Position numbers and translations under genes: made by a program | Shown: piece by piece, positions 1,392-61,103 of the stretch | Numbering within the stretch: position 1 is the stretch's first letter | How the letters are laid out: each line of letters starts with the position of its first letter | NCBI RefSeq assembly: GCF_000379965.1 | Contig: NZ_KB904331.1 | Coordinates: 327,523-391,522, forward strand | Reading direction: 5' to 3' | Source: Hoylesella nanceiensis DSM 19126 = JCM 15639 | GTDB lineage: Bacteria; Bacteroidota; Bacteroidia; Bacteroidales; Bacteroidaceae | Length of the DNA stretch: 64,000 nt | The notes under the pieces: generated by a model | Told to the model about the DNA's origin: nothing | The model's input: the letters and a program-made list of their open reading frames with translations, nothing else | Databases searched by the model: none

Positions 1392-1479
1392 AATTGCATT
1401 GAGTTTGCAATACAATCTCATTGAGTTTACATCATAAAAGCAGTGCTATTGCAATGCAAACTCTTATCTTTTACTCACA
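1392..1479 (+). repeat. 22-bp periodic repeat array 1
   Basis: Unit cores begin at 1392 (AATTGCATTG), 1414 (AATCTCATTG), 1436 (AAAAGCAGTG) and weakly 1458 (AAACTCTTAT), all exactly 22 bp apart. The core AAAAGCAWTG recurs at nine other arrays in this window. The array lies between two co-directional plus-strand genes, lpxB and cls. Confidence 0.75.
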
Positions 1480-1825
1480 TCTTTCAATCATCTCTCGCTA
1501 AAAAACAGCTCATCAGCCATCTAAAACCACGCTATTTCGCCCCTAAGTGCTGCACTTTTATTCGTTTATCCCCTCTCCTTTTTCATCTCAACACATCATT
1601 CTACAAAACAAAAGCAATGCTTTTACCTCACTTTCTCTTTCTTTTCTCTCACAAAACCAATCCAAGAGTCAAGCAAAATCAACAAAAAACATCTTTTTAC
1701 TCGCCAGTTCTTGTCATTCAAGAACAATATTCCTCAGTAAACAAACCTTAACAAAAGCAGACCAACACGCACGTCTTACGAACGAATATTATCAGCAAAA
1801 AACAACAAGGAAATTATTTTTTTTG

Positions 1826-1833
1826 TATATTTG
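1826..1833 (+). promoter_or_regulatory. -7 promoter element of cls
   Basis: TATATTTG matches the Bacteroidetes TAnnTTTG -7 element. It lies about 52 bases upstream of the cls start codon. Confidence 0.6.
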
Positions 1834-1885
1834 TGCTATCATTGTGCCCCAAATTGAAACCAACGAAGCACAGAAATAAATAAAG

Positions 1886-3310
1886 ATGACTTATATAAAC
1901 ATTCTTTTTTTATTATTCTACCTAAGCATTATCATTGCAACGATGATAACAATCATAATGGATAACAGACAACCAACCAAAACAATGGCGTGGATTTTGG
2001 TGCTTGTTTTCTTACCCATTGTTGGCTTTGTGCTATATATTTTCTTCGGACAGAACATCAGAAAAGAGCGATTTATAAGTCAACGAAGCCTCGACAAGCT
2101 ATCGAAGCAAACCATGTTCGAGTATATCGAACAACAAAACCTGCACCTTCCGCTCGCTCATTCGGCTTTAATACAATTCTTTCAAAGCCAAAATATGGCG
2201 TTTCCGTTTAAAGATAACGAAGCAGAAATATACACTTCGGGACACGATTTCATTTTGTCTTTATTAAAAGAGATAGGCTCTGCCCAGCATCATATTCATC
2301 TTGTGAGTTACATTTTTGAAGATGATGCGTTGGGATATCTCGTTGCCGACACCCTAATTGATAAGGCTCAACAAGGCGTTGAGGTGCGTTTGATATACGA
2401 CGATGTGGGTTGTTGGAAGGTGAAAAACAAGTTTTGGCAACGCATTCGCAATGGGGGTGTCGAGGTTTATGCCTTTATGCCTGTGCATTTCCCTGCCTTT
2501 ACAAGTAAAATGAACTATCGAAATCACCGCAAGCTGTGTGTTGTTGATGGCAAAACTGCCTTTATTGGCGGTATGAACATTGCTTTGCGCTACTTAAAAG
2601 GCACGAAAAAAATGCAGTGGAGAGACACTCATTTGAAAGTAGTTGGAGGTGGTGTTTATGGCATTCAGCGTGCGTTCTTAATTGATTGGTACTTCGTTTC
2701 GCAAACACTTCTCACCTCTTCGATTTATTATCCACCGCTTTCAAACGACATTAGCAACGAGTGTATAGCACAAGTGGTCACAGGTAGCCCTGTAAGTGTG
2801 TGGCCCGACATCATGCAAGGCTTTATTCGTATCATCTTAGAAGCCAAAAATTATGTTTATATTGAAACGCCTTACTTCCTTCCTACCGAGCCTTTTATGG
2901 CCGCAATAACGAATGCTGCGCTCTCAGGAGTTGATGTTCGACTACTCATTCCTGCACAATCTGATGCGCTCATCACATCTTTAGCTACTCATTCTTACAT
3001 CCCCGAGGCACTCGAAGCGGGTGTAAAAGTGTTCTTATATCAAAAGGGGTTCAACCATTCTAAATTGCTTGTATGCGACGATAGCTTATGCACTTGTGGC
3101 AGTACGAATATCGATTTCAGAAGTTTTGAGAACAACTTTGAATCGAACATCATTTTCTATGATTCGAAAATGGCTAAGAGAATGAAGGAGGTATTTATCG
3201 AAGACGAAAACAATAGTATTTTGGTGGTAGACTATATTGCCAATAAAAAGCGTTCGTTTGCCGTGCGCTTATGGGAATCTATCTTGCGTTTATTATCGCC
3301 ATTACTCTAA
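1886..3310 (+). CDS. cls: Cardiolipin synthase (phospholipase D superfamily)
   Basis: This enzyme makes cardiolipin from phosphatidylglycerol at the inner membrane. The first 60 residues form two hydrophobic segments followed by a basic stretch, as in bacterial ClsA-type proteins. Two PLD catalytic HxK(x4)D motifs are visible: H214-R-K216 with D221, and H391-S-K393 with D398. Each is followed by the usual GG or GSTN segment. The 474-residue length is typical. A good -7 box lies about 52 bases upstream and a strong hairpin terminator lies at 3403-3426. The neighbours are unrelated, so it is probably monocistronic. Confidence 0.93.
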   Translation: MTYINILFLLFYLSIIIATMITIIMDNRQPTKTMAWILVLVFLPIVGFVLYIFFGQNIRKERFISQRSLDKLSKQTMFEYIEQQNLHLPLAHSALIQFFQSQNMAFPFKDNEAEIYTSGHDFILSLLKEIGSAQHHIHLVSYIFEDDALGYLVADTLIDKAQQGVEVRLIYDDVGCWKVKNKFWQRIRNGGVEVYAFMPVHFPAFTSKMNYRNHRKLCVVDGKTAFIGGMNIALRYLKGTKKMQWRDTHLKVVGGGVYGIQRAFLIDWYFVSQTLLTSSIYYPPLSNDISNECIAQVVTGSPVSVWPDIMQGFIRIILEAKNYVYIETPYFLPTEPFMAAITNAALSGVDVRLLIPAQSDALITSLATHSYIPEALEAGVKVFLYQKGFNHSKLLVCDDSLCTCGSTNIDFRSFENNFESNIIFYDSKMAKRMKEVFIEDENNSILVVDYIANKKRSFAVRLWESILRLLSPLL

Positions 3311-3402
3311 TTCTTCTACGCAAAAATTGTTCTCTTTCAATCTAAATTCGCACACATAAAAAATGAAGGATAAAGCGTTTATGCCTTATCCTCTATCTGT
3401 TT

Positions 3403-3426
3403 AAAAGAGCTTTTCGTTGCTCTTTT
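3403..3426. terminator. Hairpin terminator between cls and rsmD
   Basis: AAAAGAGC, an 8-base loop and GCTCTTTT form a perfect stem with A and T tracts on either side. It can therefore stop transcription in both directions between the convergent cls and rsmD genes. A second hairpin (about 3366-3392) lies just before it. Confidence 0.75.
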
Positions 3427-3457
3427 CTATTTATCTCTAACGAAAAAGAATCTTGTT

Positions 3458-4003
3458 TTATTCTTTTGGCTTTGCTTTAAACAACGAAAAGTTAACGCTT
3501 CCGTATGCTCTTCGCTCTAAAAAACAAGGGTGTTCCTCAAAATGATTATGCTTTCCGTGTTCTAAAACAAAGATACCATCTTCGCTTAATATGTCTTTAT
3601 CTAAAACGATCTGAGGTATTTCTTCAAGATTTTTCAATGCATAAGGAGGGTCGGCAAATATCAAATCGAATGTTTCTCGGCACGATTTTAAATAGCGAAA
3701 CACATCTCCTCGAATCAAAGAGTAATTATCTGCGCCCAATTTATCAATACATTGACGAATAAAGGTGCAGTGATCACGATCTAACTCCAATCCAACAACA
3801 TACTGAGCTTCTCGAGATAACAACTCGATAGATATGCTTCCTGTTCCTGCAAACAAATCTAATGCTCTGCAATCTTCAAAATCTATATAACCATTTAGTA
3901 CGTTAAAGATATTCTCTTTGGCAAAATCTGTGGTGGGACGAGCCTTAAATGTTCTTGGAATATCAAAGTGACGACCTTTATATTTACCTGTAATTACTCT
4001 CAT
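3458..4003 (-). CDS. rsmD: 16S rRNA (guanine-966 N2)-methyltransferase
   Basis: RsmD methylates G966 of 16S rRNA in the small subunit using S-adenosylmethionine. The SAM-binding motif DLFAGTGS lies at residues 49-56 and the catalytic DPPY motif at 118-121. The N-terminal MRVITGKYKGR stretch is typical of the family, and the 181-residue length is normal. The start ATG lies two bases after the stop of the upstream DUF3822 gene, so the two are probably co-translated. This pairing recurs across Bacteroidetes. Confidence 0.95.
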   Translation of the reverse strand: MRVITGKYKGRHFDIPRTFKARPTTDFAKENIFNVLNGYIDFEDCRALDLFAGTGSISIELLSREAQYVVGLELDRDHCTFIRQCIDKLGADNYSLIRGDVFRYLKSCRETFDLIFADPPYALKNLEEIPQIVLDKDILSEDGIFVLEHGKHNHFEEHPCFLERRAYGSVNFSLFKAKPKE

Positions 4004-4004
4004 A

Positions 4005-4820
4005 TTAGCCTTTAGTGAATAGTGTAATTAAATCGAATGGCATTCCTTTTACTTGTGTTGCAGGGGCTCTATTGAACTCTGCTGTGGGGTTAATGGTGTA
4101 GACTTTATTGATATATCGATTGAGATTTTCGATATGCCACTCGTATTCTGGAATGTTTCCCATGATAAATAGCTCGTCGTTTGTGGCGTCGAAACCCAAC
4201 AATTTCCATACATGCATAATGTAATAAACAGCATCGTGGGGGTGAGAAACATCAAAACTATTGGTGAATTTAAATCTATTCTTATTGAAACAAAATACAT
4301 CTACCTTCTTATCATGAAAGCAAGCGTAGAGCTTTTGATGATGTCCTGAGAAGCTTCTTCTATGCATATATTTCCAAACGGGTTGCATAATGGGCATGAA
4401 ACGCACGTTAGGAATGTTGTCGGTGAGCACCATTTTAAGGTCTTTACTAATGCCAAACAAGGCAACGGCATTGGTTTCGGGCATGATATAATGCAGAGTT
4501 TCGATGTTATCGCAGTCTGTTAGGACATACTTATACATATTTTCGGCCTCTTCCTCAACGAATTCTTCAACAGGAACCATCACAACTGGAGCGTCAACAA
4601 ACACTTGTGCCTTTTGAAACTTGCGCAATAATAAACCGTTTTCCTTAAATGCTTCACGCAAGTTGGCTGCCATTGAGATGCCACTTCGAACGGTATAAGG
4701 TTCGAAAAGTATACGATGTTCGGTCTGAAGGTCGTTTACTGCAAATGAAAGTGTTTGCTTTCCTATTCGGAAAACAAGCGGTAATTGCTTTGACAAAGAA
4801 TGGAATTCTGTTTCTTGCAT
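4005..4820 (-). CDS. DUF3822 family protein
   Basis: This is a 271-residue soluble protein of a Bacteroidetes-restricted family with no established function. It has no signal peptide or membrane segment. The sequence pattern (N-terminal strand-rich half, then acidic EEFVEEEAENMY at about 88-99, then a second similar half) fits the DUF3822 family, for which I recall an actin/ASKHA-like fold; that structural point is recollection and not visible here. Its stop is adjacent to the rsmD start, consistent with an operon, so a link to ribosome maturation is possible but is only guilt by association. Confidence 0.85.
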   Translation of the reverse strand: MQETEFHSLSKQLPLVFRIGKQTLSFAVNDLQTEHRILFEPYTVRSGISMAANLREAFKENGLLLRKFQKAQVFVDAPVVMVPVEEFVEEEAENMYKYVLTDCDNIETLHYIMPETNAVALFGISKDLKMVLTDNIPNVRFMPIMQPVWKYMHRRSFSGHHQKLYACFHDKKVDVFCFNKNRFKFTNSFDVSHPHDAVYYIMHVWKLLGFDATNDELFIMGNIPEYEWHIENLNRYINKVYTINPTAEFNRAPATQVKGMPFDLITLFTKG

Positions 4821-4904
4821 CGGTTTATTATATAATAAGAAAAATGTACTTCTACTCTATTTCGGGATAAAACAAATAGGAATATTGGTCTTTTGGCTAC
4901 TCAA

Positions 4905-5066
4905 TTAGGGCTGAGTGGCGGGTTCAATCGGTTGCTCTTGCTGTGCTTTTGTGGCTCCTTTGTCTGTCGATGAGCCTCCCATTGCATTTCGAATACTTAA
5001 ATAACACAATATAACTAATGCAAGAACACAAAGCGTTAAGATATAATTCTGATTGATTTTAAGCAT
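4905..5066 (-). CDS. Small single-pass membrane protein
   Basis: This 53-residue protein starts MLKINQNYILTL, has one transmembrane helix (about residues 8-27) and ends in a Gln/Pro-rich tail. Similar tiny membrane proteins occur upstream of DUF3822-rsmD loci in Bacteroidales, which supports it being real. I chose the internal ATG at 5066: the 25 extra upstream codons lack protein character, and the helix starts close to this Met as expected. A minus-strand -7 box (5180-5187) would give a leader of about 108 bases. Function is unknown. Confidence 0.6.
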   Translation of the reverse strand: MLKINQNYILTLCVLALVILCYLSIRNAMGGSSTDKGATKAQQEQPIEPATQP

Positions 5067-5084
5067 TGTTCTACCTATTTTTTC

Positions 5085-5092
5085 TATCTTTG
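5085..5092 (+). promoter_or_regulatory. -7 promoter element of the RecD-like helicase gene
   Basis: TATCTTTG is a perfect -7 element reading rightward, about 115 bases before the helicase start. It lies to the left of the leftward promoter at 5180-5187, so the two transcripts would overlap in antisense. Confidence 0.6.
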
Positions 5093-5133
5093 CAATACCT
5101 AAAGAAACATCGTTTTGAGCACAATAGCAAAAC

Positions 5134-5143
5134 AAAAGCATTG
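5134..5143 (+). repeat. Isolated 22-bp-family repeat core
   Basis: AAAAGCATTG matches the repeat core. It sits in the right arm of a small inverted repeat, CAATAGCAA / TTGCTATTG. Confidence 0.45.
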
Positions 5144-5179
5144 CTATTGGTTCTTTTTTGTGTTCTAAAGGTGCAACTG

Positions 5180-5187
5180 CAAAAGTA
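5180..5187 (-). promoter_or_regulatory. Leftward -7 element for the small membrane protein / DUF3822 / rsmD cluster
   Basis: On the minus strand this reads TACTTTTG, matching TAnnTTTG. It is the nearest candidate promoter for the minus-strand cluster ending in rsmD. Confidence 0.5.
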
Positions 5188-5208
5188 CAAAATACTTTTT
5201 AATAATCG

Positions 5209-6642
5209 ATGATAGTAGACGAAATAACATATCAAATCGAGTCTTTCATAGGCTTTTCTCCCACAAACGACCAACATAATGCAGCCCTTTCGTTTGCTCA
5301 TTTCTTAACAGAAGGAGCGCAAAACAGCATTATGATTATCAAAGGAAGTGCAGGAACGGGAAAGACTTCATTAGCTTCTGCTATCGTAAAATCGCTTACT
5401 TCATTAAAACAAAAGGTAGTTTTAATGGCTCCAACGGGTCGAGCTGCAAAGGTTTTCTCTATCAATAGTGGTACAACGGCATTCACTATTCACCGCAAGA
5501 TCTATCGACAAAAGACCTTTGCAGGCTTAGATACGACCTTTAATCTTAACGATAACCTTCATAAAGATACGCTTTTCATTGTCGATGAGGCTTCGATGAT
5601 ATCTAATTCTTCGTCTTTTACCTCTACATTCGGTAGTGGTTGCCTTTTAGAAGATTTGCTGTCGTATGTTTATAACGGCGTTAATTGTCGCCTTTTGCTT
5701 ATTGGTGACAACGCACAGTTACCGCCAATAGGTGAAGAAACATCGCCTGCATTAACCAAAGAGGTGATTGAACGGTTCTCATTTTATGTGTATGAGAGTG
5801 AATTGAACGAGGTTTTAAGACAAAATAAGGATAGTGGTATATTATGGAATGCCAACATTATTCGCACAATGATTGACGAATTGGCATACGGCGAGTTGCC
5901 TATTATGAAGCTAAAGCAATTTAGTGACATTGAAGTGGTGTATGGAGACGAACTCATTGAGTGCCTCAATAACAGCTATAAGCAGGTGGGTGTTGATGAA
6001 ACTATGGTGATTACACGCTCTAATGCTCGTGCTAAAATATACAATTTAGGCACTAGGAATAAGGTATTCGACTATGAAGAGGAACTGAATTCGGGCGACA
6101 TTCTCATGGTAGTAAAGAACAATTACTATTGGACTGAGCAGGCTAAAGCTCCTATTAGCTTTCTTGCTAATGGCGATAGAGCCATCGTTCGCAGGGTAAG
6201 AAACAAGAGAGAGCTATATGGTTTGCACTTTGCTGATGTGCTATTGCAGTTCCCTGACTATGATAATTATGAGCTTTACACTACCATTATACTTGATACT
6301 CTGCTCTCAGATACGGCTGCTTTGAGTAAAGAACAAAACGAAATGCTCTATAAAGGCTTGTTAGAAGACTATCAAGATGTTAGCGTTAAGACTGAAAAAA
6401 TGAAGCAAATAAGGAGCGATGCCTATTTCAATGCCTTACAAGTGAAATACTCTTATGCCATAACATGCCACAAAGCACAGGGCGGGCAGTGGGCTCATGT
6501 GTACATAGATCAAGGCTTTTTAACCGAAGATATGCTCAATCAAGACTATTATCACTGGCTATATACGGCCTTAACTCGTGCCTCTGAGAAGGTATATTTA
6601 GTGAATTGGAATAAGAAATACACTGATTTACCTGAAGATTAA
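5209..6642 (+). CDS. RecD-like ATP-dependent DNA helicase (SF1)
   Basis: This 477-residue AAA_30/UvrD_C_2-type helicase carries Walker A GSAGTGKT (residues 46-53), motif Ia-like APTGRAAK (74-81), Walker B DEAS (126-129) and C-terminal motif V-like TCHKAQG (about 420-426), followed by YTALTRA motif VI. This is the RecD/Dda-like superfamily 1 layout, short and without RecB or RecC neighbours. Related stand-alone proteins are common in Bacteroidetes and are annotated as RecD-like or AAA helicases. The role is probably in DNA repair or replication-fork processing; the exact substrate is not deducible. The leader is long (about 110 bases) and overlaps the leader of the divergent cluster. Confidence 0.88.
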   Translation: MIVDEITYQIESFIGFSPTNDQHNAALSFAHFLTEGAQNSIMIIKGSAGTGKTSLASAIVKSLTSLKQKVVLMAPTGRAAKVFSINSGTTAFTIHRKIYRQKTFAGLDTTFNLNDNLHKDTLFIVDEASMISNSSSFTSTFGSGCLLEDLLSYVYNGVNCRLLLIGDNAQLPPIGEETSPALTKEVIERFSFYVYESELNEVLRQNKDSGILWNANIIRTMIDELAYGELPIMKLKQFSDIEVVYGDELIECLNNSYKQVGVDETMVITRSNARAKIYNLGTRNKVFDYEEELNSGDILMVVKNNYYWTEQAKAPISFLANGDRAIVRRVRNKRELYGLHFADVLLQFPDYDNYELYTTIILDTLLSDTAALSKEQNEMLYKGLLEDYQDVSVKTEKMKQIRSDAYFNALQVKYSYAITCHKAQGGQWAHVYIDQGFLTEDMLNQDYYHWLYTALTRASEKVYLVNWNKKYTDLPED

Positions 6643-6659
6643 ACGCACCTTTGCAATGC

Positions 6660-6669
6660 AAAAGCACTT
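6660..6669 (+). repeat. Isolated repeat core at the dnaG 3' end
   Basis: AAAAGCACTT matches the 22-bp-family core with one or two changes. It abuts the dnaG stop codon in the short gap between the convergent helicase and dnaG genes. Confidence 0.3.
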
Positions 6670-11841: not shown

Positions 11842-12044
11842 TTTTGATGCGTCTTTGTTTCGACTGAGCAATAAAAATAGTTCTCTTTTCCTCAGCAAGA
11901 GTGTTCTAACTTTATTGAAAATGGAAAGAAAAGAGGTCGATAAAGAAAGATGAAATGAATGAGCATCTTTTTCTATCTCAAAGCAAGAGGAAGACAATGA
12001 GCATGGCGAGGAAAAACAAAGGGACTGAAAGGGGAAAACAATTG

Positions 12045-12132
12045 CTATGCTTTTACAACCTAAAAGCAATGTAACTGCATCTTAATTACACTGCTTTTGC
12101 ATTGCAATAGCACGTCTTTTTCTCTATTTTGA
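12045..12132 (-). repeat. 22-bp periodic repeat array 2
   Basis: Cores in reverse orientation begin at 12045 (CTATGCTTTT), 12067 (CAATGTAACT), 12089 (CACTGCTTTT) and 12111 (CACGTCTTTT). There are four units at exactly 22 bp. The array lies between convergent genes. Confidence 0.8.
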
Positions 12133-15658: not shown

Positions 15659-15753
15659 ATACATTTATTTTAATCCTCCAAATTTTCAATTACTTTTTAT
15701 TCTTATTTTTTCAAATATTCCTACTCTAACCCTCGCCTACTCCTATCTAATAA

Positions 15754-15841
15754 CACTGCTTTTAAATCCCTAAAAGCATCACTTTACACCCCAATAGCAA
15801 TGCTATTTAATGTAAAAAGAGTTGCATTTTACATTGAAACT
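15754..15841 (-). repeat. 22-bp periodic repeat array 3
   Basis: Reverse-orientation cores begin at 15754 (CACTGCTTTT), 15776 (GCATCACTTT), 15798 (CAATGCTATT) and 15820 (AGTTGCATTT), at exact 22-bp spacing. The array sits between the divergent tRNA-Val and trpS and ends about 40 bases before the trpS -7 box. Confidence 0.75.
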
Positions 15842-17196: not shown

Positions 17197-17372
17197 AAAA
17201 GCATTGCGTTCCATGGGCAATAGCATTGCAATTAGGCGACAAAAGCATTGTGTTTGCGTCATAAAAGCAATGATATTATGCGGGGAATTATATCTCTATT
17301 TGGGGATAAAGGCAATGTCATTATGCGTAATTGTTTCACAATTTGAAGATAAAAGCGATGGCGTTACGTATA
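17197..17372 (+). repeat. 22-bp periodic repeat array 4 (longest)
   Basis: Cores begin at 17197 (AAAAGCATTG), 17219 (AATAGCATTG), 17241 (AAAAGCATTG) and 17263 (AAAAGCAATG) at exact 22-bp spacing. Degenerate spacers follow, then two more cores at 17308 (AAAGGCAATG) and 17351 (AAAAGCGATG), 45 and 43 bases on, i.e. near two further periods each. Confidence 0.8.
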
Positions 17373-20758: not shown

Positions 20759-21037
20759 TTAAATCAACCAATAATAAACGACAGCCAATAAGCCCAAAAG
20801 TAAAAGCGTTGGTATTACAAGTAAAAAGGATTGACTTAAGGGTGTAAAAGCATTGGAATTAGAGCGTAAAAGGATAGGTTTTACAATCCTCTTGCTCGCC
20901 TCTTTGTTTTCACCTTTATTCATCGAGCTTTCCACTTGATATTTTTCTTTGAGCTTATCGATATATTCTTTGCGCTCATTATAATACAGATAGCGATGCT
21001 CGAATCCCCTTGGTTTCGCCTGTTTAAACCAATTCAT
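20759..21037 (-). CDS. Small membrane protein interrupted by a 22-bp repeat array
   Basis: This 92-residue protein has an N-terminal soluble half (FKQAKPRGFEHRYLYYNERKEYIDKLKEKYQ) and one C-terminal transmembrane helix (about 70-91). Similar small proteins lie between ostA-like and mutL genes in Bacteroidales, usually described only as hypothetical. The linker from about residue 47 to 72 is encoded by three exact 22-bp units of the dispersed repeat (20824-20889). Since 22 is not a multiple of three, each unit is read in a different frame; the linker therefore looks like inserted sequence. It has two bases of spacing from the upstream ostA-like gene. Confidence 0.7.
   Translation of the reverse strand: MNWFKQAKPRGFEHRYLYYNERKEYIDKLKEKYQVESSMNKGENKEASKRIVKPILLRSNSNAFTPLSQSFLLVIPTLLLLGLLAVVYYWLI
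20824..20889 (+). repeat. 22-bp periodic repeat array 5, inside a coding region
   Basis: Three cores begin at 20824 (AAAAGGATTG), 20846 (AAAAGCATTG) and 20868 (AAAAGGATAG), exactly 22 bp apart. They are antisense to the small membrane-protein gene at 20759-21037. Confidence 0.75.
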
Positions 21038-21039: not shown

Positions 21040-22764
21040 TTATTGAGACGTATTTTCTTCTGTCGGTTTATTTGTATTTTGTTGGGTGGTTTCTTTGGGT
21101 TTATTCTCCGATTCGAATCTTTGTACGGGTGCTTTTTGGCGCTCTATCACTCTAAGCTTTTCGCTATCGGTCTTTCCTTTCCATTTAAATACATCCTCTT
21201 TCGATTTTGGTCGTAGATGATCTAACCACGCAAAAGAAGGCAGATGTAATTTATCGGTTGGTATTTGACTTATTGGGAAGAGTGTACCTTGTGCCTTTGG
21301 CATCCAAATTCGCTCCAGTTTTTTCTCTTTATTGATATACATTCGCATGGTATCGGTCTCGATATAGTTGAGTCCAATCATCGAACTATCCTTGTCATTG
21401 ATAGGATAAAAGATAATTCTTACATTGTCGATGCACACCAAGCGACGTAAAGCTCCTTCGTCAAAGTAGGCATTCATCAGTTTAGAAGAAACCTGATTGA
21501 AGTTCTTTTTATCATCGAGTTGCTCAACAGAAAGCGCCTGTCCTTCTACTTTAGCCATGCGAATAGTGCTATCGTTCATATAAACATAGATCTTTTCACC
21601 CAGCACTTGTCGGTTATCGCTCCACAAAACGGGATCGTAATACATCGTTAAACAAGAGTCTTTTCCATTTGCAACCAGCGAATCGCATATTGCTTGCACA
21701 TCTTTTCGATAAGCAACCACGTGTCTAAAGGCATGCACTTTTCGATAAGCCGAATCGGTATTGATGTGCATGGTCTCTATCTTTAGCGAGTCAGCATGCA
21801 TAAATAAGGTGTCACCTTGCGAATAATCTTTTAGCAATGCCTTCTTTGTTGCAAAGCCTTTGCCTGTCTTTTCGTTATAAACAAACACGTCGGCATGCAA
21901 TTCATTCTTGTTCTTTTTATCGACATATATCACATTTCCATAGCCTTGACCAATGCCTGTCTTCTTGTCTCTATATAGAGTATCACCTGTAATGACCTTC
22001 TCTTTACTTGTAATGGTAGACCTTGAGAACAGCTCTACCTTATCTTTCTTGGTATCGAAGTAGCCATCTTGGGTTTTCACCACATCGCCATTAGTTACAA
22101 TAGTGGTTGGACCTTTGAAGTGAGCCTGCGACTTTGGCGCATCATAATATAAGGTATCGGTTTCGATATTGCTCTTTCCACTATTGAGTTTCACCCCAAA
22201 ATAGAACACAGCTTGGCGTGACTGGGTATTGTATTCGCCCCAATCTGCAATCAATTGGTCTTTTCCATCTACCAGTTTTCCGCCGTCAAAGAAGTAGGCA
22301 TTCTTATACATTCGATCGTAATTCAAACTATCTGTATAAAGAGTTTGATTGCGATGCTTCAACACTACATTCTTTCTTACTTCAAGAATTTGTGTCACTC
22401 CATCGTAAAAACCACGCTCGCCTTTAAGCGAAAGGGTGTCGCCTTGTCGGAAAAGAACACGTCCAAAGGCTCTAACAGAGTTCGACTCTTGATAGAGATA
22501 GGCACTGTCACATGTGAGAGTTGCCCCGTTGTGCTTCAAACGAACGTTGCCTTTTAATATCTGTGCATCGGGATTTGGACCATAGATGTCACGCTTTAGC
22601 TCGTCTGCATGCTCCAAATAAACCTTTTGATCTTCACGTATTACACGTTTCTTTTGCGGTGTGTTATAGGCAAAGAGCGCACATAATCCAAAGAGGCATA
22701 GAACCAATAGCGTACTGATTCTATGCCTTATTGACTTTAATTCCTTATCTTTTATATATCTCAT
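21040..22764 (-). CDS. OstA/LptA-like LPS-transport protein
   Basis: This 574-residue exported protein starts with a hydrophobic segment near residues 15-33 after a basic N-terminus. Repeated OstA-type strand units follow (for example LKGNVRLKHNGATLTCDSAYLYQ), which build the beta-jelly-roll that carries lipopolysaccharide across the periplasm. The tail is Glu/Lys/Thr-rich and low complexity. It is much longer than E. coli LptA, as is usual for Bacteroidetes OstA-like proteins. Its position between a SurA-like chaperone and mutL is conserved. It probably works with LptB (33.6 kb). Confidence 0.88.
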   Translation of the reverse strand: MRYIKDKELKSIRHRISTLLVLCLFGLCALFAYNTPQKKRVIREDQKVYLEHADELKRDIYGPNPDAQILKGNVRLKHNGATLTCDSAYLYQESNSVRAFGRVLFRQGDTLSLKGERGFYDGVTQILEVRKNVVLKHRNQTLYTDSLNYDRMYKNAYFFDGGKLVDGKDQLIADWGEYNTQSRQAVFYFGVKLNSGKSNIETDTLYYDAPKSQAHFKGPTTIVTNGDVVKTQDGYFDTKKDKVELFSRSTITSKEKVITGDTLYRDKKTGIGQGYGNVIYVDKKNKNELHADVFVYNEKTGKGFATKKALLKDYSQGDTLFMHADSLKIETMHINTDSAYRKVHAFRHVVAYRKDVQAICDSLVANGKDSCLTMYYDPVLWSDNRQVLGEKIYVYMNDSTIRMAKVEGQALSVEQLDDKKNFNQVSSKLMNAYFDEGALRRLVCIDNVRIIFYPINDKDSSMIGLNYIETDTMRMYINKEKKLERIWMPKAQGTLFPISQIPTDKLHLPSFAWLDHLRPKSKEDVFKWKGKTDSEKLRVIERQKAPVQRFESENKPKETTQQNTNKPTEENTSQ

Positions 22765-27463: not shown

Positions 27464-27551
27464 AAAAGCAATGCAATTGCACTGCAAAAGAAGTGTTTTT
27501 ATACGATAAGAGCAATGCTTTTTCAATTGAAAAGCATTGCTCTTACATTTC
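27464..27551 (+). repeat. 22-bp periodic repeat array 6
   Basis: Cores begin at 27464 (AAAAGCAATG), 27486 (AAAAGAAGTG), 27508 (AAGAGCAATG) and 27530 (AAAAGCATTG). There are four units at exactly 22 bp, in the 349-bp gap between recQ and guaB (both minus strand). Nothing else is seen in the gap besides the guaB promoter. Confidence 0.85.
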
Positions 27552-34504: not shown

Positions 34505-34592
34505 AAAAGCATTAATATTACACTGCAAAAGCATTGATATTGCACCCTAAAAGCAATGTAATTACGATGTAAAAGCACTGCTTTTATAAAGC
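34505..34592 (+). repeat. 22-bp periodic repeat array 7
   Basis: Cores begin at 34505 (AAAAGCATTA), 34527 (AAAAGCATTG), 34549 (AAAAGCAATG) and 34571 (AAAAGCACTG). This is the cleanest array: four units, exact 22-bp spacing. It occupies the gap upstream of lptB. Confidence 0.9.
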
Positions 34593-40839: not shown

Positions 40840-42123
40840 ATGAAAAAACTAATTATAATGGCTTTTGCCATCTCTGCCCTACTTTCTGGTTGCGATTCGT
40901 GGGTCGACAAGGCTGAAACTCCAAGTAACACGCTTACTTATGATGAGTTAAAGCGTCCAAGTATGATTGCAACTCTTCAATCGAACAACATCAGTGACGG
41001 TCCAATGGTGGCGTTTGTTAAAACGCTTCAGGGCGAAGCTGCAGCACAATCGTTTTTGGCTTTGGGCACAACGGTTGACGAATTGACTGAGGGAACGATT
41101 CCTAATGCTTTGCTTTATCGTCACATTTCGAGCGATAACATCACTCCTTCGTCGGGCACTCAAAACGATCTTTGGAACCGTTTACAGAACTATTATGCAA
41201 GAAGTATTGAGGTATTGAATGTTGCCAACGAGCTTCCCGACAACAATACGAAGGCAACTAACTTGTCGAAGGCTTATGGTGGCTACATAGGTAACTTGCA
41301 TGCGGGATACGCTTTACAGCTTTTGGCTGAGTGTTTTTCTACTACTCCTGCTGCTGAAGGGGGCTCTATACGACTTAATAATGCTTTGGTTTCGCACGAA
41401 TCACTATTCACTATGGCGCAAAACCATTTTAACAAGGCTTTGGAATTTGTGCAAATGCAGGCTATTAAGGACGCTTCGGGCTTCAACTACAATGCAGCTG
41501 TCCGCCAAATCAACACTTACAAGTTGCGTTTGGCTATGCACCAGCAACGTTATAGCGATGCGGCTACTTTGGTTGCACTTGCTATTAACGACTCGGAACA
41601 GGTGGAGGTGATTTATAATAACGATGGTTCTGACAATCCTTTGTATGCTGCTATCGGTCCAAATGCTCGTGATGTGCAGGTAACTGCTGACTTGGAGGCT
41701 GCTCGTTCTACTACTGCTGAGCAAAATGCACTGCCTTTGAAGCACGCAAGTGTAGACAAGAAGAATCCTAATCGCTACAACATCTATGCCTCTGCGCTAT
41801 CAAGAAAGGGCGCACTTGTTATTGCTGACGCTGCTGACATTCATTTTATTAAGGCTGAATTGATTGTTCGTGGCGTGCTAAGTGGTGACGCTTTAGTGGA
41901 GGTGAACAAGGTGATTGCAAAGTATAATGCGAGTGATGCGGAAACTGCTACTCCTTCTTTGGAACGTATTGCTACGCTTCGTCGCATCTATTTGGCATTG
42001 CGTGGCGAGCGAACTGCGGACATTAGACGTGGCTTGGAACAAGGTTCTGCGGCTACAAAGTGGCAACAACGCAAAACTAAATGGTTGCCTTTGCCTGAAA
42101 AGGAATTGGAGAACCTCCCCTAA
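40840..42123 (+). CDS. SusD/RagB-family outer membrane lipoprotein
   Basis: This 427-residue lipoprotein has a lipobox (LLSGC, Cys at residue 18) and is surface-exposed as the lid of the SusC transporter. TPR-like helices recur through the middle, for example around HAGYALQLLAECFSTTP. The C-terminal segment (RIATLRRIYLALRGERTADIRRGL to WLPLPEKELENLP) is the usual SusD terminus. It is somewhat shorter than most SusD proteins but appears complete. A four-unit terminator-like tandem array begins at the stop codon. Confidence 0.88.
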   Translation: MKKLIIMAFAISALLSGCDSWVDKAETPSNTLTYDELKRPSMIATLQSNNISDGPMVAFVKTLQGEAAAQSFLALGTTVDELTEGTIPNALLYRHISSDNITPSSGTQNDLWNRLQNYYARSIEVLNVANELPDNNTKATNLSKAYGGYIGNLHAGYALQLLAECFSTTPAAEGGSIRLNNALVSHESLFTMAQNHFNKALEFVQMQAIKDASGFNYNAAVRQINTYKLRLAMHQQRYSDAATLVALAINDSEQVEVIYNNDGSDNPLYAAIGPNARDVQVTADLEAARSTTAEQNALPLKHASVDKKNPNRYNIYASALSRKGALVIADAADIHFIKAELIVRGVLSGDALVEVNKVIAKYNASDAETATPSLERIATLRRIYLALRGERTADIRRGLEQGSAATKWQQRKTKWLPLPEKELENLP

Positions 42124-42270
42124 CCCCATACGATGGGGGGCGGTTTTCTTTTAGTTTAAGAAGAAACCCCATACGATGGGGGGCGGTTTTTCTTTTGACT
42201 AAAGAAGAAACTCCCACATAAAAGAGGGCGATTTTCTTTTGATTTAAAAAGAAAATCCCAAACAACAGGA
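42124..42270 (+). terminator. Tandem array of terminator hairpins after susD
   Basis: Four imperfect units begin near 42123, 42166, 42210 and 42254 (period 43-44 bp). Units 1 and 2 contain the perfect palindrome CCCCATACGATGGGG followed by GGCGGTTTTCTTTT, a hairpin plus T run. Unit 3 is degenerate (CTCCCACATAAAAGAGGG) and unit 4 is a fragment. Confidence 0.7.
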
Positions 42271-42791
42271 AGGTATCCTCATACAATGAGAAGTGTACTT
42301 TTAAAGTTGAAGGGATAGAACTCTATACAATAAAAGGATAATAGTTCTTTTAAAAAGAAGGGTATTCGAGATAACAACGTTCCTATTTAAATGGAATATG
42401 GATAAAGTAACAATCTGGTTTCAACGAGGTTGTTACTTTTTTTTATGGCTACTACCTTTCCTTTGAAACACAAGTGGAATGAGGTGGGCGAATAAAAGGA
42501 ATGCTATTGCAATGTAAAAGCATTGGATTTACATTGCAATAGCATTGAGTTTGTGGGGCAAAAGCATTGCTTTTTATTGGCCACCGCTATATGCTTGAAA
42601 AGTACTTATGTTGCAACTCGTTTTCAACCTCTTTTCCATGACATCGAAACAAGGTGCATCTTTCTTCTTTGATGCTCTTCTTTTTTCAACCAAAAGGAAG
42701 GATAATATTTCCTACCTATATATATACGAGAAAAAGAAGGTGACTTTTAAAAGAGAATGCGTAAGAAGTTGCGTGAGAGGGGCACAACCTT
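42271..42791. other. Non-coding gap between convergent susD and folA
   Basis: This gap holds the end of the terminator array, an AT-rich stretch, and a 22-bp repeat array (42494-42581). A hairpin-like GTTACTTT region (about 42407-42442: AAAGTAACAA / TTGTTACTTT) with a T run may be another terminator. No gene is supported. Confidence 0.55.
42494..42581 (+). repeat. 22-bp periodic repeat array 8
   Basis: Cores begin at 42494 (AAAAGGAATG), 42516 (AAAAGCATTG), 42538 (AATAGCATTG) and 42560 (AAAAGCATTG). There are four units at exactly 22 bp. Confidence 0.88.
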
Positions 42792-48612: not shown

Positions 48613-49155
48613 CTTTTGCCCTCTTTCGTTATTTTAGAAGGAATCGTCACATTTATTTATCACAAATAAAAACGTTTATAATGCTAATTTCATTGCTTTT
48701 AGAATCATAAGTCAATAGGAAAATACTGAAAGTATTTCATTCCGATAAAAGTTGAGATGCTTGTTTTACGCTCCTATGGCAATTAAAATAACATAATCTG
48801 TCCTCTCACTTATTCCAATCTAACGACCACTCCTCGACCTTACAACTCTTTACCTTTCTAATTTCACATCTCCATTAATCTCTTTACCCCACTTACTGCA
48901 ACCGCCCCACAACCTTACTTCCTCTTATAAACATTCTTCTCTCCGACAATCTCACTGCTTTTGCATTCTAATAGCATTAAAATTACATTCTAATAACATT
49001 GAGATTGGATTGCAATTGTAATGAGATTGGAAATTCAATGTTTTAAAGAGAAAGAGGCATATAAATTTAATTCTTACATAAAATAGAAAAATAAAAATAC
49101 ATTAGACATTCCTAAAAATATCACAATAAACACTTTCTTAATTAACAACTTATTA
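48613..49155. other. Non-coding left part of the accessory island
   Basis: This stretch is AT-rich with no supported gene, and contains a host-type 22-bp repeat array (48953-49040). The presence of that array suggests this flank comes from the same or a closely related species. Confidence 0.5.
48953..49040 (-). repeat. 22-bp periodic repeat array 9
   Basis: Reverse-orientation cores begin at 48953 (CACTGCTTTT), 48975 (CATTAAAATT), 48997 (CATTGAGATT) and 49019 (TAATGAGATT). The 22-bp spacing is exact although cores 2-4 are degenerate. Confidence 0.7.
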
Positions 49156-55113: not shown

Positions 55114-55155
55114 TTAGACGAGTATAAACGATCATTCTGTTACTAATTCGATGTA

Positions 55156-55163
55156 CAAATATA
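55156..55163 (-). promoter_or_regulatory. -7 element for the cas1 transcript
   Basis: The minus strand reads TATATTTG, 43 bases before the degraded ATG and about 180 bases before cas1. Confidence 0.4.
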
Positions 55164-55290
55164 ATAAAAAATCGAATTCCATTATTAACATATATGATTT
55201 ATTTTTACCACTTTTTCAAGTATAACAGTATAAAAGAGAATGAGAGCACATCGTTTATTTGATAAGAACAAGAAGATAAGAACACAAAAA

Positions 55291-55324
55291 AGAGACAGAA
55301 GTTGATTGTTTTACTTCTGTCTCT
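55291..55324 (-). terminator. Terminator of cysK-cysE
   Basis: AGAGACAGAAGT and ACTTCTGTCTCT form a long stem with T tracts on both sides, 67 bases beyond the cysE stop. Confidence 0.85.
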
Positions 55325-55390
55325 TTCTTATTATTTCAATCGAAATATATTTTCGAAAACTCTCAAATAAAAGGGGGCTTTCCTCCTATT

Positions 55391-57189: not shown

Positions 57190-57346
57190 TATTCTTTCCA
57201 TAACTCTCATTTATTTAAATTATACATCTCCCATCAACAGCAATGTTGTTATCCTGTTGCTCGCTTCTGGGGTTTTTATCTTTATTTTTTACGTTTCTAC
57301 AAACGTGTTCTCTTTATTGTTATCCCGCTCTTTGTGGGGCATATTA

Positions 57347-59824
57347 CTACATTCCTTTACCCGAACCAGCACCCAAACCAGGTACTTGCGAATTGCTATC
57401 TTCTCGCTCTTGGAAATCGTTTGTAATTTTACTTGAGCGTTGTTGGAATGTTTTCTTTGTATTTCCGAAATTCCAAGCCACTGTAAACATAAGATTTCTA
57501 AGAGGAATTTTGATATTCATCTTATTCTCGAAATCGTGTCCTTTGCTATATTGTTTGATCTCTAACTTGCCTGTTAGTGGTTCAAGATAGAGCAAACTCA
57601 AGCTTAGTTTATCGTTGAATAGACTCTTTGTAAGTGTCGAAATCAACATATTATGACCTGTTTGATAGCCCTGAAGAGTGTATTTGTTGGTAGAACCAGT
57701 GACATTCACATTCCATTTCAAATCCCATGGCAATGTTTGTTGCACTCCTAAGAATGCCGTTGCCATCCAACCTGAGTTGTGTTGGTTGAGCTGTGCAGAC
57801 TTTAAGTCGGCATACTCAAGAGTGAGATTGAGCATTATTCGGGTCTTTTTAGATAGAGAATAGTTCATAAAAGTGTTGAAATTAAATGACTTACTTTGCA
57901 CAATATTGCCATAAGTTCTATTTAAAATGCCACTTTGCATGAATGAGTATTCTTCTATTTTATTATTAGCAAAAGTTGTACCAAGCGTGAAATTGGCCAT
58001 AAACTTGCGTGAGAAGGTGTTATAAACCAAATTAATGTTGTGAGTCTTTTCCACCTCTAAATCGCTATTTCCATAGCTTATTATCGTTGGATTAGAGCGA
58101 TCTACATAAGGATTTAAATAGGTAATACCAGGACGAGTGATGCGCATACCATAGTTAATACCTATATTCTTTGTTCGAGAAAGATTGTAGGTGACACTGG
58201 CAGAAGGCACAAGATTACCATAATTCTTTTTAAAATTAGAACCTGCACCCAAAACAAAATCTACACTTTCCCATGTATGCTCGTATCTAAGTCCTGCCTT
58301 AGCACTCACATTTTTCAATGTAACCTTATACTCTGCATACTCTGCTAAAATGCTTTGAAGATTCTTATAATTAACGCTTTTGGCTGGATCATACTGCTCA
58401 ACGCTACCCACTATATCGTAAAAACGAGAGTCGGAAGAGTTTCTCCTACTGATATATTTAGCACCAGCATTCAACTGTTGGGTCTTACTTAATGGTGTGA
58501 TATAATCCACTTGCAATGTATGTTCGGTTCCACGTGTCTTTGCTTCTGAATAAAGATCAGCGAGTGGAATAGTGACCAATGCAGAAAGTGGATCGTAGTT
58601 TCGACGATTTTCGCTACGAGCAGGACTGGTTGTAAAAAGATAACTCAACGTAATGCTACTTGTTCTGCTTCTATTTAAGAAACGCTGATAATCTAAACTA
58701 CCATTATATGAGTTGTTGACATTTTTCATTGTCATATCATTGCTATACGAAAAGCCTGTTCCATAGCTACCACCCGTGAAGGTTGTTGTTGGATGTCCAT
58801 CGTTATTCATCTCGAATTGAGTTATTCCTAACGTTGCATTCACATTACTAACAGAGTCTATTTCATACCCCAAACTAACATTAGCCATAGTGAAAGGCAT
58901 TCTTGTTGAACCCGTTTGATTATAAATCATACGTGAACCATCACTCGCAATACGTTCCATCTCGGTTTCAACACCTTTCACCCTACCTCTGTTGTTCATT
59001 ATGTTAGCACTATAACTAAGCTTGCCTTGCTGTCCACCGATAAAGCTCGAAAGTCGCAAACCTATTGCAGCTGCAGTTAAACTGACATTTCCATTATAGC
59101 CATTTTGCTTCATTTTAGAGTTGGAAGACGCATTCATAACGATGTTGAGCACGCCTCCTACACCCTCGGCATCATACTTTGCACCTGGATTGGTTATCAC
59201 CTCGATGCTCTTTACCATTGACGCTGGCATGGCTTTAAATACCTGCGAAGGATTAGAAGAGAACATTACGCTTGGCTTTCCGTCAACATACACTTTGAAA
59301 GAGCTTTGACCATTCACCATGATATTGTCTTGTCCATCGACGGTAACCATAGGAACTTTGCGCAACATATCGAGCACAGTACTGGCTTTTGAGTCGTTGT
59401 CGGCTTGCACATCATAGGCCATTTTGTCGGTTTCCATCTTCACAAGTGGCTTTTGCGCCACCACTTCAACACCTTTAAGCTGTTTGGTATTATCTTGAAT
59501 AAGCAACTTACCTAAGTCTATCTCGCCCCCTCTGGTACCCAACTGCACGTTGCGTATAATTTCTTTGCGACCCATTGAGCTAAAAGAAATCAAGAAATGG
59601 CCCTGTCCATTCACTGTATGAGCAAATGTTCCGTCCATATTTGTAACCCACATGGCAAGGGGTTTATCGCTCTTACGTTCTTTATAAACCCTAATAGTTA
59701 CATAAGGTTCGCCTTGACTTGTAAGCGAATCTACCACCATTCCTTTTATTGTTGAGGTTTGGGCATAACTATTTACGGAGCCTAACAACAGGCCAAAGAA
59801 TAATAAAGTGCTTTTTGTTTTCAT
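57347..59824 (-). CDS. Outer-membrane beta-barrel (TonB-dependent-like) protein with carboxypeptidase-regulatory domain
   Basis: This 825-residue outer-membrane protein has a signal peptide (ending NSYAQ). A regulatory-like beta-sandwich domain follows (about 24-110), then a plug-like region (IMVNGQSSFKVYVDGKPSVMFSSNPSQVFKAMPASMVKSIEVITNPGAKYDAEGVGGVLNIVMN, here about 167-230) and a long beta-barrel. This matches the Bacteroidetes OMP_b-brl_3 type, related to TonB-dependent receptors. The C-terminus ends with a glycine-rich tail (GLGAGSGKGM). No SusD partner or regulator is adjacent; substrate unknown. Confidence 0.85.
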   Translation of the reverse strand: MKTKSTLLFFGLLLGSVNSYAQTSTIKGMVVDSLTSQGEPYVTIRVYKERKSDKPLAMWVTNMDGTFAHTVNGQGHFLISFSSMGRKEIIRNVQLGTRGGEIDLGKLLIQDNTKQLKGVEVVAQKPLVKMETDKMAYDVQADNDSKASTVLDMLRKVPMVTVDGQDNIMVNGQSSFKVYVDGKPSVMFSSNPSQVFKAMPASMVKSIEVITNPGAKYDAEGVGGVLNIVMNASSNSKMKQNGYNGNVSLTAAAIGLRLSSFIGGQQGKLSYSANIMNNRGRVKGVETEMERIASDGSRMIYNQTGSTRMPFTMANVSLGYEIDSVSNVNATLGITQFEMNNDGHPTTTFTGGSYGTGFSYSNDMTMKNVNNSYNGSLDYQRFLNRSRTSSITLSYLFTTSPARSENRRNYDPLSALVTIPLADLYSEAKTRGTEHTLQVDYITPLSKTQQLNAGAKYISRRNSSDSRFYDIVGSVEQYDPAKSVNYKNLQSILAEYAEYKVTLKNVSAKAGLRYEHTWESVDFVLGAGSNFKKNYGNLVPSASVTYNLSRTKNIGINYGMRITRPGITYLNPYVDRSNPTIISYGNSDLEVEKTHNINLVYNTFSRKFMANFTLGTTFANNKIEEYSFMQSGILNRTYGNIVQSKSFNFNTFMNYSLSKKTRIMLNLTLEYADLKSAQLNQHNSGWMATAFLGVQQTLPWDLKWNVNVTGSTNKYTLQGYQTGHNMLISTLTKSLFNDKLSLSLLYLEPLTGKLEIKQYSKGHDFENKMNIKIPLRNLMFTVAWNFGNTKKTFQQRSSKITNDFQEREDSNSQVPGLGAGSGKGM

Positions 59825-60015
59825 ATATCTTTACTTCTTTCATTCATATTCTATTTCTTCTTTATGGCTGGTTTATAATCTTGCCATCATGTTCGAAATC
59901 GAAGATAACCCTATAAACTGGTTCGTTTAGAACTGTGATCTTTTATAAAGTGGGCCATTTTATCTTTATCTTTAAATGAACAGATGAATATATTCTGATC
60001 ATAAAAGTATGTTCT

Positions 60016-60624
60016 TTATTTTTTATTGATACTCTTTTTTTGCTTATACCACATACAAAAATCAACGGTAAACAGGCACAACCAAATGCAAAAACAAATA
60101 ACCCCTAAGCCTCCTAACCATGCTAAAGGAGTGCGTATAAATGCTGCAACAAGCGGAGATGCAATTTCTTTTCCATTTACTGTCAAGCCTTCTGTATAAA
60201 CAACATCATCTGATTTCGCTGAAGTACCTTCAAAAAACAGACTATGAAACTTTATATAATTCCCTTTTTTGGTTTTATCAATAAAGAAAGTGATGGTATC
60301 ACCTTTGTTAATTACATAGTCGTCGAGTTTATATTTTGGAGGAAATAAAAAGAAAGGATAAGAATTTTCATATCCTTGCCAATAGATATGGTTTGTATCT
60401 CCTTCTAAACTAAAATTTACTTCCCAACCACTATGAGACGTTTCAAGTATGCGTATTCCATGAACAATGCCTGTTTTACGTGGCAAGTCATCTCTAACTG
60501 AGAGGAATCCTATTACATAAAAAGGTAATAAGAAAAAAAGAGTTGCAGCCATACAATATATTCTGGCAGGAATATCCCAATACTTTAACATGGAATCTAT
60601 TTTGAATTTATACTTTAATTTCAT
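60016..60624 (-). CDS. Two-pass membrane protein of unknown function
   Basis: This protein has about 202 residues from the ATG at 60624. It has one transmembrane segment near residues 23-46 and another near 167-190, with an extracytoplasmic beta-rich domain between them (TGIVHGIRILETSHSGWEVNFSLEG to GDTITFFIDKTKKGNYIKFHSL). The topology resembles DUF3592-type proteins, but I do not recognise the family with certainty. Base composition is AT-rich like the rest of the 60-63 kb region. Confidence 0.55.
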   Translation of the reverse strand: MKLKYKFKIDSMLKYWDIPARIYCMAATLFFLLPFYVIGFLSVRDDLPRKTGIVHGIRILETSHSGWEVNFSLEGDTNHIYWQGYENSYPFFLFPPKYKLDDYVINKGDTITFFIDKTKKGNYIKFHSLFFEGTSAKSDDVVYTEGLTVNGKEIASPLVAAFIRTPLAWLGGLGVICFCIWLCLFTVDFCMWYKQKKSINKK

Positions 60625-61015
60625 AAATACCAACTTTCTTCTTTATTTCTTTTGGGGACTCAAAACACTCAGTAGATAAACTTTTAGACGTTCGTTTTCA
60701 TTTCTAACAAAGCTTTCATTGCATCATGCTCGTCAGCTTTTCAAAATAAATTGGGCGCCATTTCTTTTTGATAAAGAGATTTTTCTGTTTCGATAAGGCG
60801 CAAAACAATCTGCTTTATTTGTAAAGGTAGGAATTTAATAAATACAAATCGATTTTTGTTTTAATATTTTAACAGAAAGAATTGACACTTGACGAATGTC
60901 TTGTTTTGAGTAAAACGCCTAAAAAAGAGGCATTTTTATTCTTATCTTGTTTTGCATTTCTAGTCTTTCTCTGTTGACTTTCTTTCTCATCTTCATTCTA
61001 CCTACAAAATAAGCT

Positions 61016-61103
61016 CAATGCTTTTACCTTGCAATAGCTATGTTTTTACCTACCAATATCAATGCTTTTAACACCCAATTACAGTGCTTTTTAAAGAAAT
61101 AAA
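61016..61103 (-). repeat. 22-bp periodic repeat array 10
   Basis: Reverse-orientation cores begin at 61016 (CAATGCTTTT), 61038 (CTATGTTTTT), 61060 (CAATGCTTTT) and 61082 (CAGTGCTTTT). There are four units at exactly 22 bp. Confidence 0.88.

What the first reader, a model, noticed from the sequence alone, without database searches (positions are those of the whole stretch)
1392..61103. Dispersed family of short elements made of (usually four) degenerate units at exact 22-bp spacing
Ten arrays occur in 64 kb (1392, 12045, 15754, 17197, 20824, 27464, 34505, 42494, 48953, 61016), plus singles. In eight of the ten there are four recognisable units spanning 88 bp. The first 10 bases of each unit keep AAAAGCAWTG; the other 12 vary but usually hold TT at positions 14-15. 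Spacing stays at 22 even where cores decay, so register is under constraint; 22 bp is about two helical turns, as expected for a protein polymerising on one DNA face. Both orientations occur. Porphyromonas gingivalis BrickBuilt elements carry 23-bp tandem repeats and may be a relative, but the core and unit number here are not ones I recognise.
Basis: partly seen in the sequence, partly recalled or inferred. Interest (0 to 1): 0.85.

Follow-up and report, generated by a model that had tools for sequence, protein, structure and literature searches.

The report
Four-palindrome DNA arrays at 22-base spacing
Hundreds of short DNA elements, each usually made of four palindrome-like units exactly 22 bases apart, lie in the gaps between genes of Prevotella-type bacteria; the layout recurs from genome to genome while the letters differ, which points to a chromosome-wide protein docking system for which I found no description.

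Summary
The 22-bp unit is a quasi-palindrome (AAWAGCA-W-TGCTWTT plus a variable 7-bp spacer). The genome gives 623 adjacent-unit hits against 0 for a reversed control. In the 30% of the genome examined, 59 of 82 arrays scoring 25 or more have exactly four in-register dyads. Arrays are mostly intergenic, favour convergent gaps, tend to even spacing, and are absent from a 96-kb stretch holding conjugative-transposon genes. Against a relative at about 92% identity, 22 of 24 testable arrays are retained and spacers diverge 2.9 times faster than dyads, so dyads look constrained. Other Prevotellaceae genomes, and one of 17 other Bacteroidales families sampled, show the same layout with different letters. 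Known classes tested (REP/RAYT, BrickBuilt MITE, RNA hairpins, curvature) do not fit. Best reading: docking sites for four side-by-side dimers of a sequence-specific protein, probably with a chromosome-structuring role. The protein was not found; Lrp/AsnC and ParB were tested and do not carry the changing specificity.

The parts
1392..1450 (.). array, three dyads plus a decayed in-register fourth at 1458-1472
   Evidence: retained in NC_022111.1
1610..1624 (.). lone dyad
5134..5148 (.). lone dyad overlapping the start of a predicted 78-aa minus-strand ORF
12040..12120 (.). four-dyad array, convergent gap
15749..15829 (.). four-unit array, second dyad badly decayed, co-directional gap
17197..17277 (.). 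four-dyad array, convergent gap
20802..20882 (.). four-dyad array, co-directional gap; retained in the relative
27464..27544 (.). four-dyad array between recQ (3' side) and guaB; retained in the relative
34505..34585 (.). four-dyad array about 60 bp upstream of lptB; a synteny block with the relative ends inside it
42494..42574 (.). four-dyad array, convergent gap
48948..49028 (.). four-dyad array, co-directional gap
61011..61091 (.). four-dyad array, divergent gap

Best explanation
Each array is a docking platform for a sequence-specific DNA-binding protein. Four dimers (or a complex with four two-headed DNA-binding modules) sit on four quasi-palindromic half-site pairs, 22 bp or two helical turns apart, and so lie side by side on one DNA face. 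A few hundred platforms at roughly even distances, mostly in gaps downstream of or between transcription units, most likely anchor or partition the chromosome (a boundary or nucleoid-organising role, BIME-like in function). The geometry of the protein assembly is kept while the recognised letters have been replaced between lineages, and some genomes run several letter sets. Shown: architecture, abundance, mostly intergenic placement, slow change of dyads, turnover of letters. Inferred: the protein, the four dimers, the chromosomal role.
For: Sharp information boundaries at the first and fourth dyad in 65 aligned arrays, with little conservation in the 30-bp flanks. 59 of 82 arrays have four in-register dyads; 9 of 12 'three-unit' arrays keep a decayed fourth. 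Divergence from NC_022111.1: dyads 124/1378 = 0.090, spacers 122/474 = 0.257, fourfold sites 0.192, dyad positions 1, 2, 6, 9, 14 at 0.02-0.04; spacer/dyad ratio bootstrap interval 2.31-3.66, spacers faster in 22 of 24 arrays, 22 of 24 arrays retained. Arms of the dyads are not complementary beyond chance and are anti-matched in two genomes, and array RNA folds no better than column-shuffled arrays, so duplex DNA is probably what is read. Context of 91 arrays: 44 co-directional, 30 convergent, 10 divergent, 6 inside predicted ORFs, 1 at an edge. Spacing more even than stratified random gaps in two of three segments (CV P 0.0038 and 0 of 5000; third 0.053). Same layout with other letters: shift 22 gives 45 clusters in 80 named loci against at most 17 for any other shift from 12 to 40; G210 has 505 and G288 387 pairs of their own motifs per strand, 0 of either in G000.
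Against: No binding protein was identified; Lrp/AsnC and ParB were tested and are conserved where the motif changes. At larger distance array positions are not shared: with G191 1 gap with an array in G000 only, 1 in G191 only, 0 in both, 14 in neither; with G039 1, 1, 0 and 24. Even spacing missed the 5% level in one of three segments, and the relative's raw spacing is uneven (CV 1.20 over 599 kb, no control run). Dyads at 0.090 are only slightly below average array-free intergenic DNA (0.106), and dyad positions 10-13 diverge by 0.11-0.18; the contrast is with spacers, adjacent flanks and fourfold sites. Gene conversion between arrays could mimic constraint on dyads.
Confidence: 0.45

Rival explanations
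1. Selfish or domesticated mobile elements (MITE- or REP-like) that copy themselves into harmless gaps; the four-unit layout is a transposase-binding structure.
For: Two arrays in L150 are near-identical copies including spacers and about 34 bp of flank. In G288 arrays flank a dispersed repeat with aligned copies of about 230-450 bp. Positions turn over between distant congeners. Palleniella muris has an array where P. intestinalis (94.6% identity) has a small open frame. Some minor-family arrays have identical or near-identical units.
Against: In G000 no two of 64 arrays are more alike than column-shuffled arrays (best 37, null maxima 33-37 in 20 shuffles). No conserved flank in 30 bp; target duplications could not be tested without an empty site. 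No Y1_Tnp transposase in G000. 22 of 24 arrays retained in the relative, with dyads slower than spacers.
Confidence: 0.22
2. Self-DNA recognition tags (an uptake-sequence-like or self/non-self marker) with lineage dialects, spread by biased recombination.
For: Genome-specific letters. Absence from a 96-kb stretch that holds CTnDOT-like conjugation genes. In IMG/VR, no exact hit for two other motif sets and five single hits, not examined further, for the G000 pattern. Even spacing was once claimed for uptake sequences, though the paper that reports this disputes it (PMC1939737, passages).
Against: The fixed number of four and the 22-bp pitch are unexplained; density is about one per 10 kb, far below the thousands of copies of Neisseria uptake sequences (PMC3630211, abstract); placement is mostly intergenic.
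Confidence: 0.15
3. Transcribed RNA element: terminator, mRNA stabiliser or 3' UTR hairpins.
For: Excess in convergent gaps: in G000 30 arrays for 55 convergent gaps of 100 bp or more, against 44 for 190 co-directional and 10 for 61 divergent; in other genomes 21 for 85, 62 for 553 and 14 for 131. Array RNA is more stable than single-base shuffles (-17.8 against -8.7), as any set of dyads would be.
Against: Arms do not covary and are anti-matched. Array RNA is no more stable than column-shuffled arrays (-17.8 against -18.5). No Rfam hit on the window's arrays. In one Palleniella gap a separate long hairpin, terminator-like to the eye, sits beside the array.
Confidence: 0.06
4. Intrinsic DNA curvature from phased A-tracts.
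For: G000 dyads carry AAWA and TWTT runs at 11-bp phase.
Against: The same layout occurs without A-tracts, for example AGTACA-N7-TGTACT in G210 and GACCNRTAYNGGTC in G288.
Confidence: 0.03

Closest known systems
REP / BIME elements with RAYT transposases
   Same: High-copy, intergenic, palindromic, lineage-specific, commoner between convergent and co-directional genes (PMC3733652, passages; PMC2817692, abstract start in a search listing)
   Different: No GTAG or CGTC tag rule, no arm covariation, fixed 22-bp pitch and usually four units, no Y1_Tnp family in G000
BrickBuilt MITE of Porphyromonas gingivalis
   Same: Intergenic elements with tandem units of about two helical turns in the same order
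   Different: 23 nt, 1 to 22.8 copies, 19 elements, leader/tail and IS5-like terminal repeats; here four units, no conserved flank in G000, about 275 arrays by extrapolation
DNA uptake sequences (DUS/USS)
   Same: Genome-wide, lineage dialects
   Different: Short motifs in thousands of copies; tetrads and a 22-bp pitch are not part of the descriptions I saw
Operator sites of chromosome-organising proteins (Noc, SlmA, ParB parS; recalled)
   Same: Dispersed palindromic sites for a dimeric protein
   Different: As recalled, sites there are single or few; here tetrads whose letters change between genomes; no second ParB in G000

Membership tests
REP/RAYT | GTAG or CGTC tetranucleotide at one end | tested here: not met
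   GTAG/CTAC in 17 and CGTC/GACG in 8 of 82 arrays with 12-bp flanks
REP/RAYT | REP-associated Y1 transposase in the genome | tested here: not met
   PF01797 0 matches in G000; only this genome was tested
REP/RAYT | stem-loop with compensating arm changes | tested here: not met
   dyad-arm pairing at or below expectation
REP/RAYT | intergenic, few in divergent gaps | tested here: met
   in other genomes divergent gaps are no poorer than co-directional ones (14 for 131, 62 for 553)
BrickBuilt / MITE | terminal inverted repeats, leader and tail | tested here: not met
   no conserved flank in 30 bp each side of 65 G000 arrays; but two L150 copies share about 34 bp of flank and G288 arrays flank a dispersed repeat
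BrickBuilt / MITE | 23-nt unit, variable copy number | tested here: not met
   22 bp, four dyads in 59 of 82 arrays
Lrp/AsnC sites | DNA-reading helix changes with the motif | tested here: not met
   helix region nearly invariant in the type shared by 20 genomes, several with different motifs; a third, more distant type found in five of the genomes was not aligned, but G000 has only one family member
ParB/Noc sites | a second, diverged ParB in the genome | tested here: not met
   one PF02195 match in G000; ParB conserved in the 5 genomes aligned
DNA uptake sequence | promotes DNA uptake | not testable with these tools
   needs transformation assays
Nucleoid / boundary sites | bound by an abundant protein; alters chromosome contacts | not testable with these tools
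   no binding protein identified

The most novel reading that the evidence does not exclude
A bacterial chromosome-organising code defined by geometry rather than letters: a protein family that assembles as four dimers reads tetrads of dyads at 22-bp pitch, its specificity shifts between lineages, and the whole set of a few hundred sites turns over with it, possibly doubling as a self-DNA mark because mobile DNA seems to lack the sites.
Probability: 0.35. Interest if true: 0.93.

Novelty: categorically new. Interest (0 to 1): 0.82.

Why it matters
If right, Prevotellaceae, common gut, rumen and oral bacteria, carry an undescribed layer of chromosome architecture, readable from sequence alone and testable by protein pull-down. 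It also poses a sharp evolutionary question: how do a few hundred constrained sites change their letters together while the spacing stays at 22 bp?

Tried and rejected
Lrp/AsnC octamer as reader (four dimers fit; consensus recalled): rejected as carrier of specificity, since the helix region is nearly invariant. ParB/Noc: one ParB in G000, conserved in the five genomes aligned. RAYT: none in G000. CRP/FNR (PF13545): counted only (3 in G000, 1 weak in G288), not pursued. RNA hairpin: no covariation, no array-specific stability. Curvature: tract-free families exist. Arrays as rearrangement hot spots: 7 of 31 arrays, 14 of 74 array-free gaps and 93 of 2298 random positions lie at synteny-block ends, so no clear excess over other gaps, although one junction lies inside an array. 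Genes beside minor-family arrays in G207, G215 and G210: varied, judged by eye from N-terminal residues, no shared regulator seen. Rfam on four loci of G288 and G211: none at gathering score. A flank motif in G211 occurs 13 times there at up to 3 mismatches, not pursued. A search of 60 relatives for a close one found at best 71% identity per segment. Similarity searches with one array each: no phage match; the plasmid search led to the relative. The five IMG/VR loci were not examined.
Full report
OBSERVATION. The core at <=1 mismatch occurs 84 times in the window against 25.9 expected, none of 100 shuffles reaching this; core pairs peak at distance 22, with at most 3 pairs at any distance in 30 block shuffles. 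In the whole genome (G000, 2,650,108 bp, 12 contigs; window = C5:327523-391522) two cores at 22 bp match 348 times forward and 275 reverse, with 0 and 0 for the reversed pattern.

ANATOMY. I examined 791.5 kb (contig C5 and C1:1-400000), about 30% of the genome. An iterated profile gives a quasi-palindrome: AAWAGCA-W-TGCTWTT (centre at position 8) and a spacer RCANTGY (centre at 19). A symmetrised scan finds 91 arrays (48 on C5, 43 on C1) against 0 and 2 in shuffled and 1 and 0 in reversed sequence; 65 of 91 are scored as four units. Aligning these 65 shows sharp ends at the first and fourth dyad and little conservation in the 30-bp flanks. Of 82 arrays scoring 25 or more, 59 have four in-register dyads, 14 five, 3 three, 2 two, 3 six, 1 eight; 9 of 12 'three-unit' arrays keep a decayed fourth. 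G000 seems to hold one family: the 9 of 88 22-shift clusters that do not overlap profile arrays look like AT-rich noise by eye. By density, about 275 arrays per genome (an extrapolation).

CONTEXT. With an in-house gene caller, the 91 arrays lie in 44 co-directional, 30 convergent and 10 divergent gaps, 6 inside predicted ORFs and 1 at an edge; gaps of 100 bp or more number 190, 55 and 61. Stratified by gap type and length, with the array-free 90-180 kb of C5 left out and 79 of 82 arrays usable, spacing is more even than random: CV P = 0.053 (C5 first 90 kb), 0 of 5000 (C5 from 180 kb), 0.0038 (C1); pairs under 2.5 kb 1 against 2.9 (P 0.10), 1 against 6.2 (P 0.0008), 0 against 3.4 (P 0.02). 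The 96-kb stretch without arrays (C5:87.2-183.6 kb) carries conjugative-transposon genes (TraG P-loop, CtnDOT_TraJ, relaxase, coupling protein, integrase) and restriction-like genes among 10 proteins tested; its limits as a mobile element were not defined, and parts of it align to the relative.

DUPLEX, NOT HAIRPIN. In 308 units Watson-Crick agreement of the seven dyad arm pairs is at or below expectation (positions 3/13: 0.41 against 0.51; 5/11: 0.42 against 0.49), and fully matching arms are rarer than the margins imply (14 seen, about 34 expected from the table). In G210, in 75 dyads chosen for perfect outer arms, the inner pair 7/13 agrees in 0.16 against 0.40, 8/12 in 0.36 against 0.48, 9/11 in 0.63 against 0.66. 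Array RNA (-17.8) is more stable than single-base shuffles (-8.7) but not than column-shuffled arrays (-18.5, range -19.6 to -17.6).

CONSTRAINT. Prevotella sp. oral taxon 299 F0039 (NC_022111.1) is a close relative (91.8% over 300 kb of blocks). Of 82 G000 arrays scoring 25 or more, 51 fall outside blocks, 7 at block ends, 24 inside. Of the 24, 22 have an array at the same place; at one the relative is 44 bp shorter, and one has no scoring array although the length is kept; no array was found in the relative only. Dyads differ at 0.090, spacers 0.257, 100-bp flanks 0.151; array-free intergenic DNA 0.106; fourfold sites 0.192; dyad positions 1, 2, 6, 9 and 14 only 0.02-0.04, positions 10-13 0.11-0.18. 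The spacer/dyad ratio has a bootstrap interval of 2.31-3.66 and spacers are faster in 22 of 24 arrays. In the 649 kb of F0039 scanned, 43 of 53 arrays have four units. Purifying selection on dyads is the plain reading; gene conversion among arrays is not excluded, and spacers above fourfold sites could hint at it.

LETTERS CHANGE, GEOMETRY STAYS. In 80 named recQ loci (1.59 Mb) an alphabet-free shift test gives 45 clusters at 22 bp against at most 17 at any other shift from 12 to 40; 33 of 80 loci have at least one. At a slightly lower threshold there are 47 clusters, 47 of 47 intergenic, 27 of 47 palindromic at P < 0.05 (21 below 0.01), and 21 of these 27 have four units; shift 21 gives 2 of 20 palindromic, 14 1 of 15, 18 5 of 11, 24 2 of 10, 28 1 of 11. 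Over six sets of loci 2 of 114 clusters fall in predicted coding sequence. The motifs differ between genomes. The G210 motif has 505 adjacent pairs on each strand in its own genome, 9, 21, 15 and 3 in four others, none in the other 15 of 20. Segatella buccae (100 kb, 3 clusters at 22, none at other shifts from 18 to 26) and G016 (80 kb, 3 against at most 1) show sets of their own; G024 (1 at 22), G265 (1) and G010 (2, equal to shifts 21 and 24) are weak. Several genomes hold more than one set. Of 17 other Bacteroidales families sampled at 20 kb (one at 1.3 kb), only G288 showed arrays, with 387 pairs per strand in its genome and 0 in nine others; there arrays flank a dispersed repeat. Among 200 genomes of the genus, G000 included, the G000 pattern matches 90, many at noise level; G039 (229 pairs), G168 (81) and G191 (62) have the most after G000. 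With the G000 profile, 12 of 12 arrays in 185 kb of G039 and 5 of 8 in 169 kb of G191 have four units; at this distance (about 65% protein identity) array positions are not shared.

WHO READS IT. Not found. Lrp/AsnC fitted the geometry but its helix region is nearly invariant in the type shared by 20 genomes; ParB is single in G000 and conserved in five genomes; no Y1 transposase in G000.

LITERATURE. Nine searches showed no description; the library is open-access only. Seen: PMC4596501 outline, section 5 and part 1 of section 7; passages of PMC5771137, PMC8040213, PMC1939737, PMC3733652 and PMC6006769; outline and abstract of PMC3630211; PMC2817692 in a search listing only. PMC4596501 notes that 22-nt tandem repeats were reported earlier in P. 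gingivalis W83 without locations; this may be related and was not tested.

VERDICT. Real, abundant, apparently constrained elements whose geometry outlives their sequence. The docking-platform reading is the best supported; the chromosomal role is an inference. I rate it categorically new because the nearest classes fail defining features tested here, with the caution that finding the protein could place it in a known regulatory class.

Noticed in passing
G000 C5 87.2-183.6 kb (L035-L040): Array-free stretch with CTnDOT-like conjugation genes, an Arm-DNA-bind_5 integrase and restriction-like genes.
   Followed up: partly
L320 near 25,100 (NC_022111.1 about 27,100) and window 34505-34585: A synteny junction between F0039 and G000 falls inside an array; both G000 ends lie at arrays (C5:299729 and C5:362026), suggesting recombination between arrays.
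   Followed up: partly
window 42122-42254: Three tandem copies of a 43-44 bp unit with CCCC...GGGG stems just after the gene 40840-42123, about twice 22 bp long, 240 bp before an array.
   Followed up: no
L164 9538-9625, L172 2360-2447: Minor-family arrays with identical or near-identical 22-bp units including spacers, looking newly born.
   Followed up: no
L290 11992-12416 and L291 9404-9853 (G288): Dispersed repeat flanked on both sides by 22-bp arrays; no Rfam match in these loci.
   Followed up: partly
L087 about 21957-22045, L305 about 2482-2570: Arrays of asymmetric units arranged two forward and two inverted, so the whole array is still a dyad.
   Followed up: no
L156 20591-20890 against L155 20591-21109: Same gap in two Palleniella species (94.6% identity): an array in one, a small open frame in the other, a similar hairpin in both.
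   Followed up: partly
NC_022111.1: A 1.77-Mb replicon listed as a plasmid in PLSDB with one annotated feature; its stretches carry long blocks syntenic with G000 contig C5, so it looks more like a chromosome.
   Followed up: no
G000 C5:325246: The single ParB gene lies just left of the window; no canonical parS within 2 mismatches on C5.
   Followed up: partly
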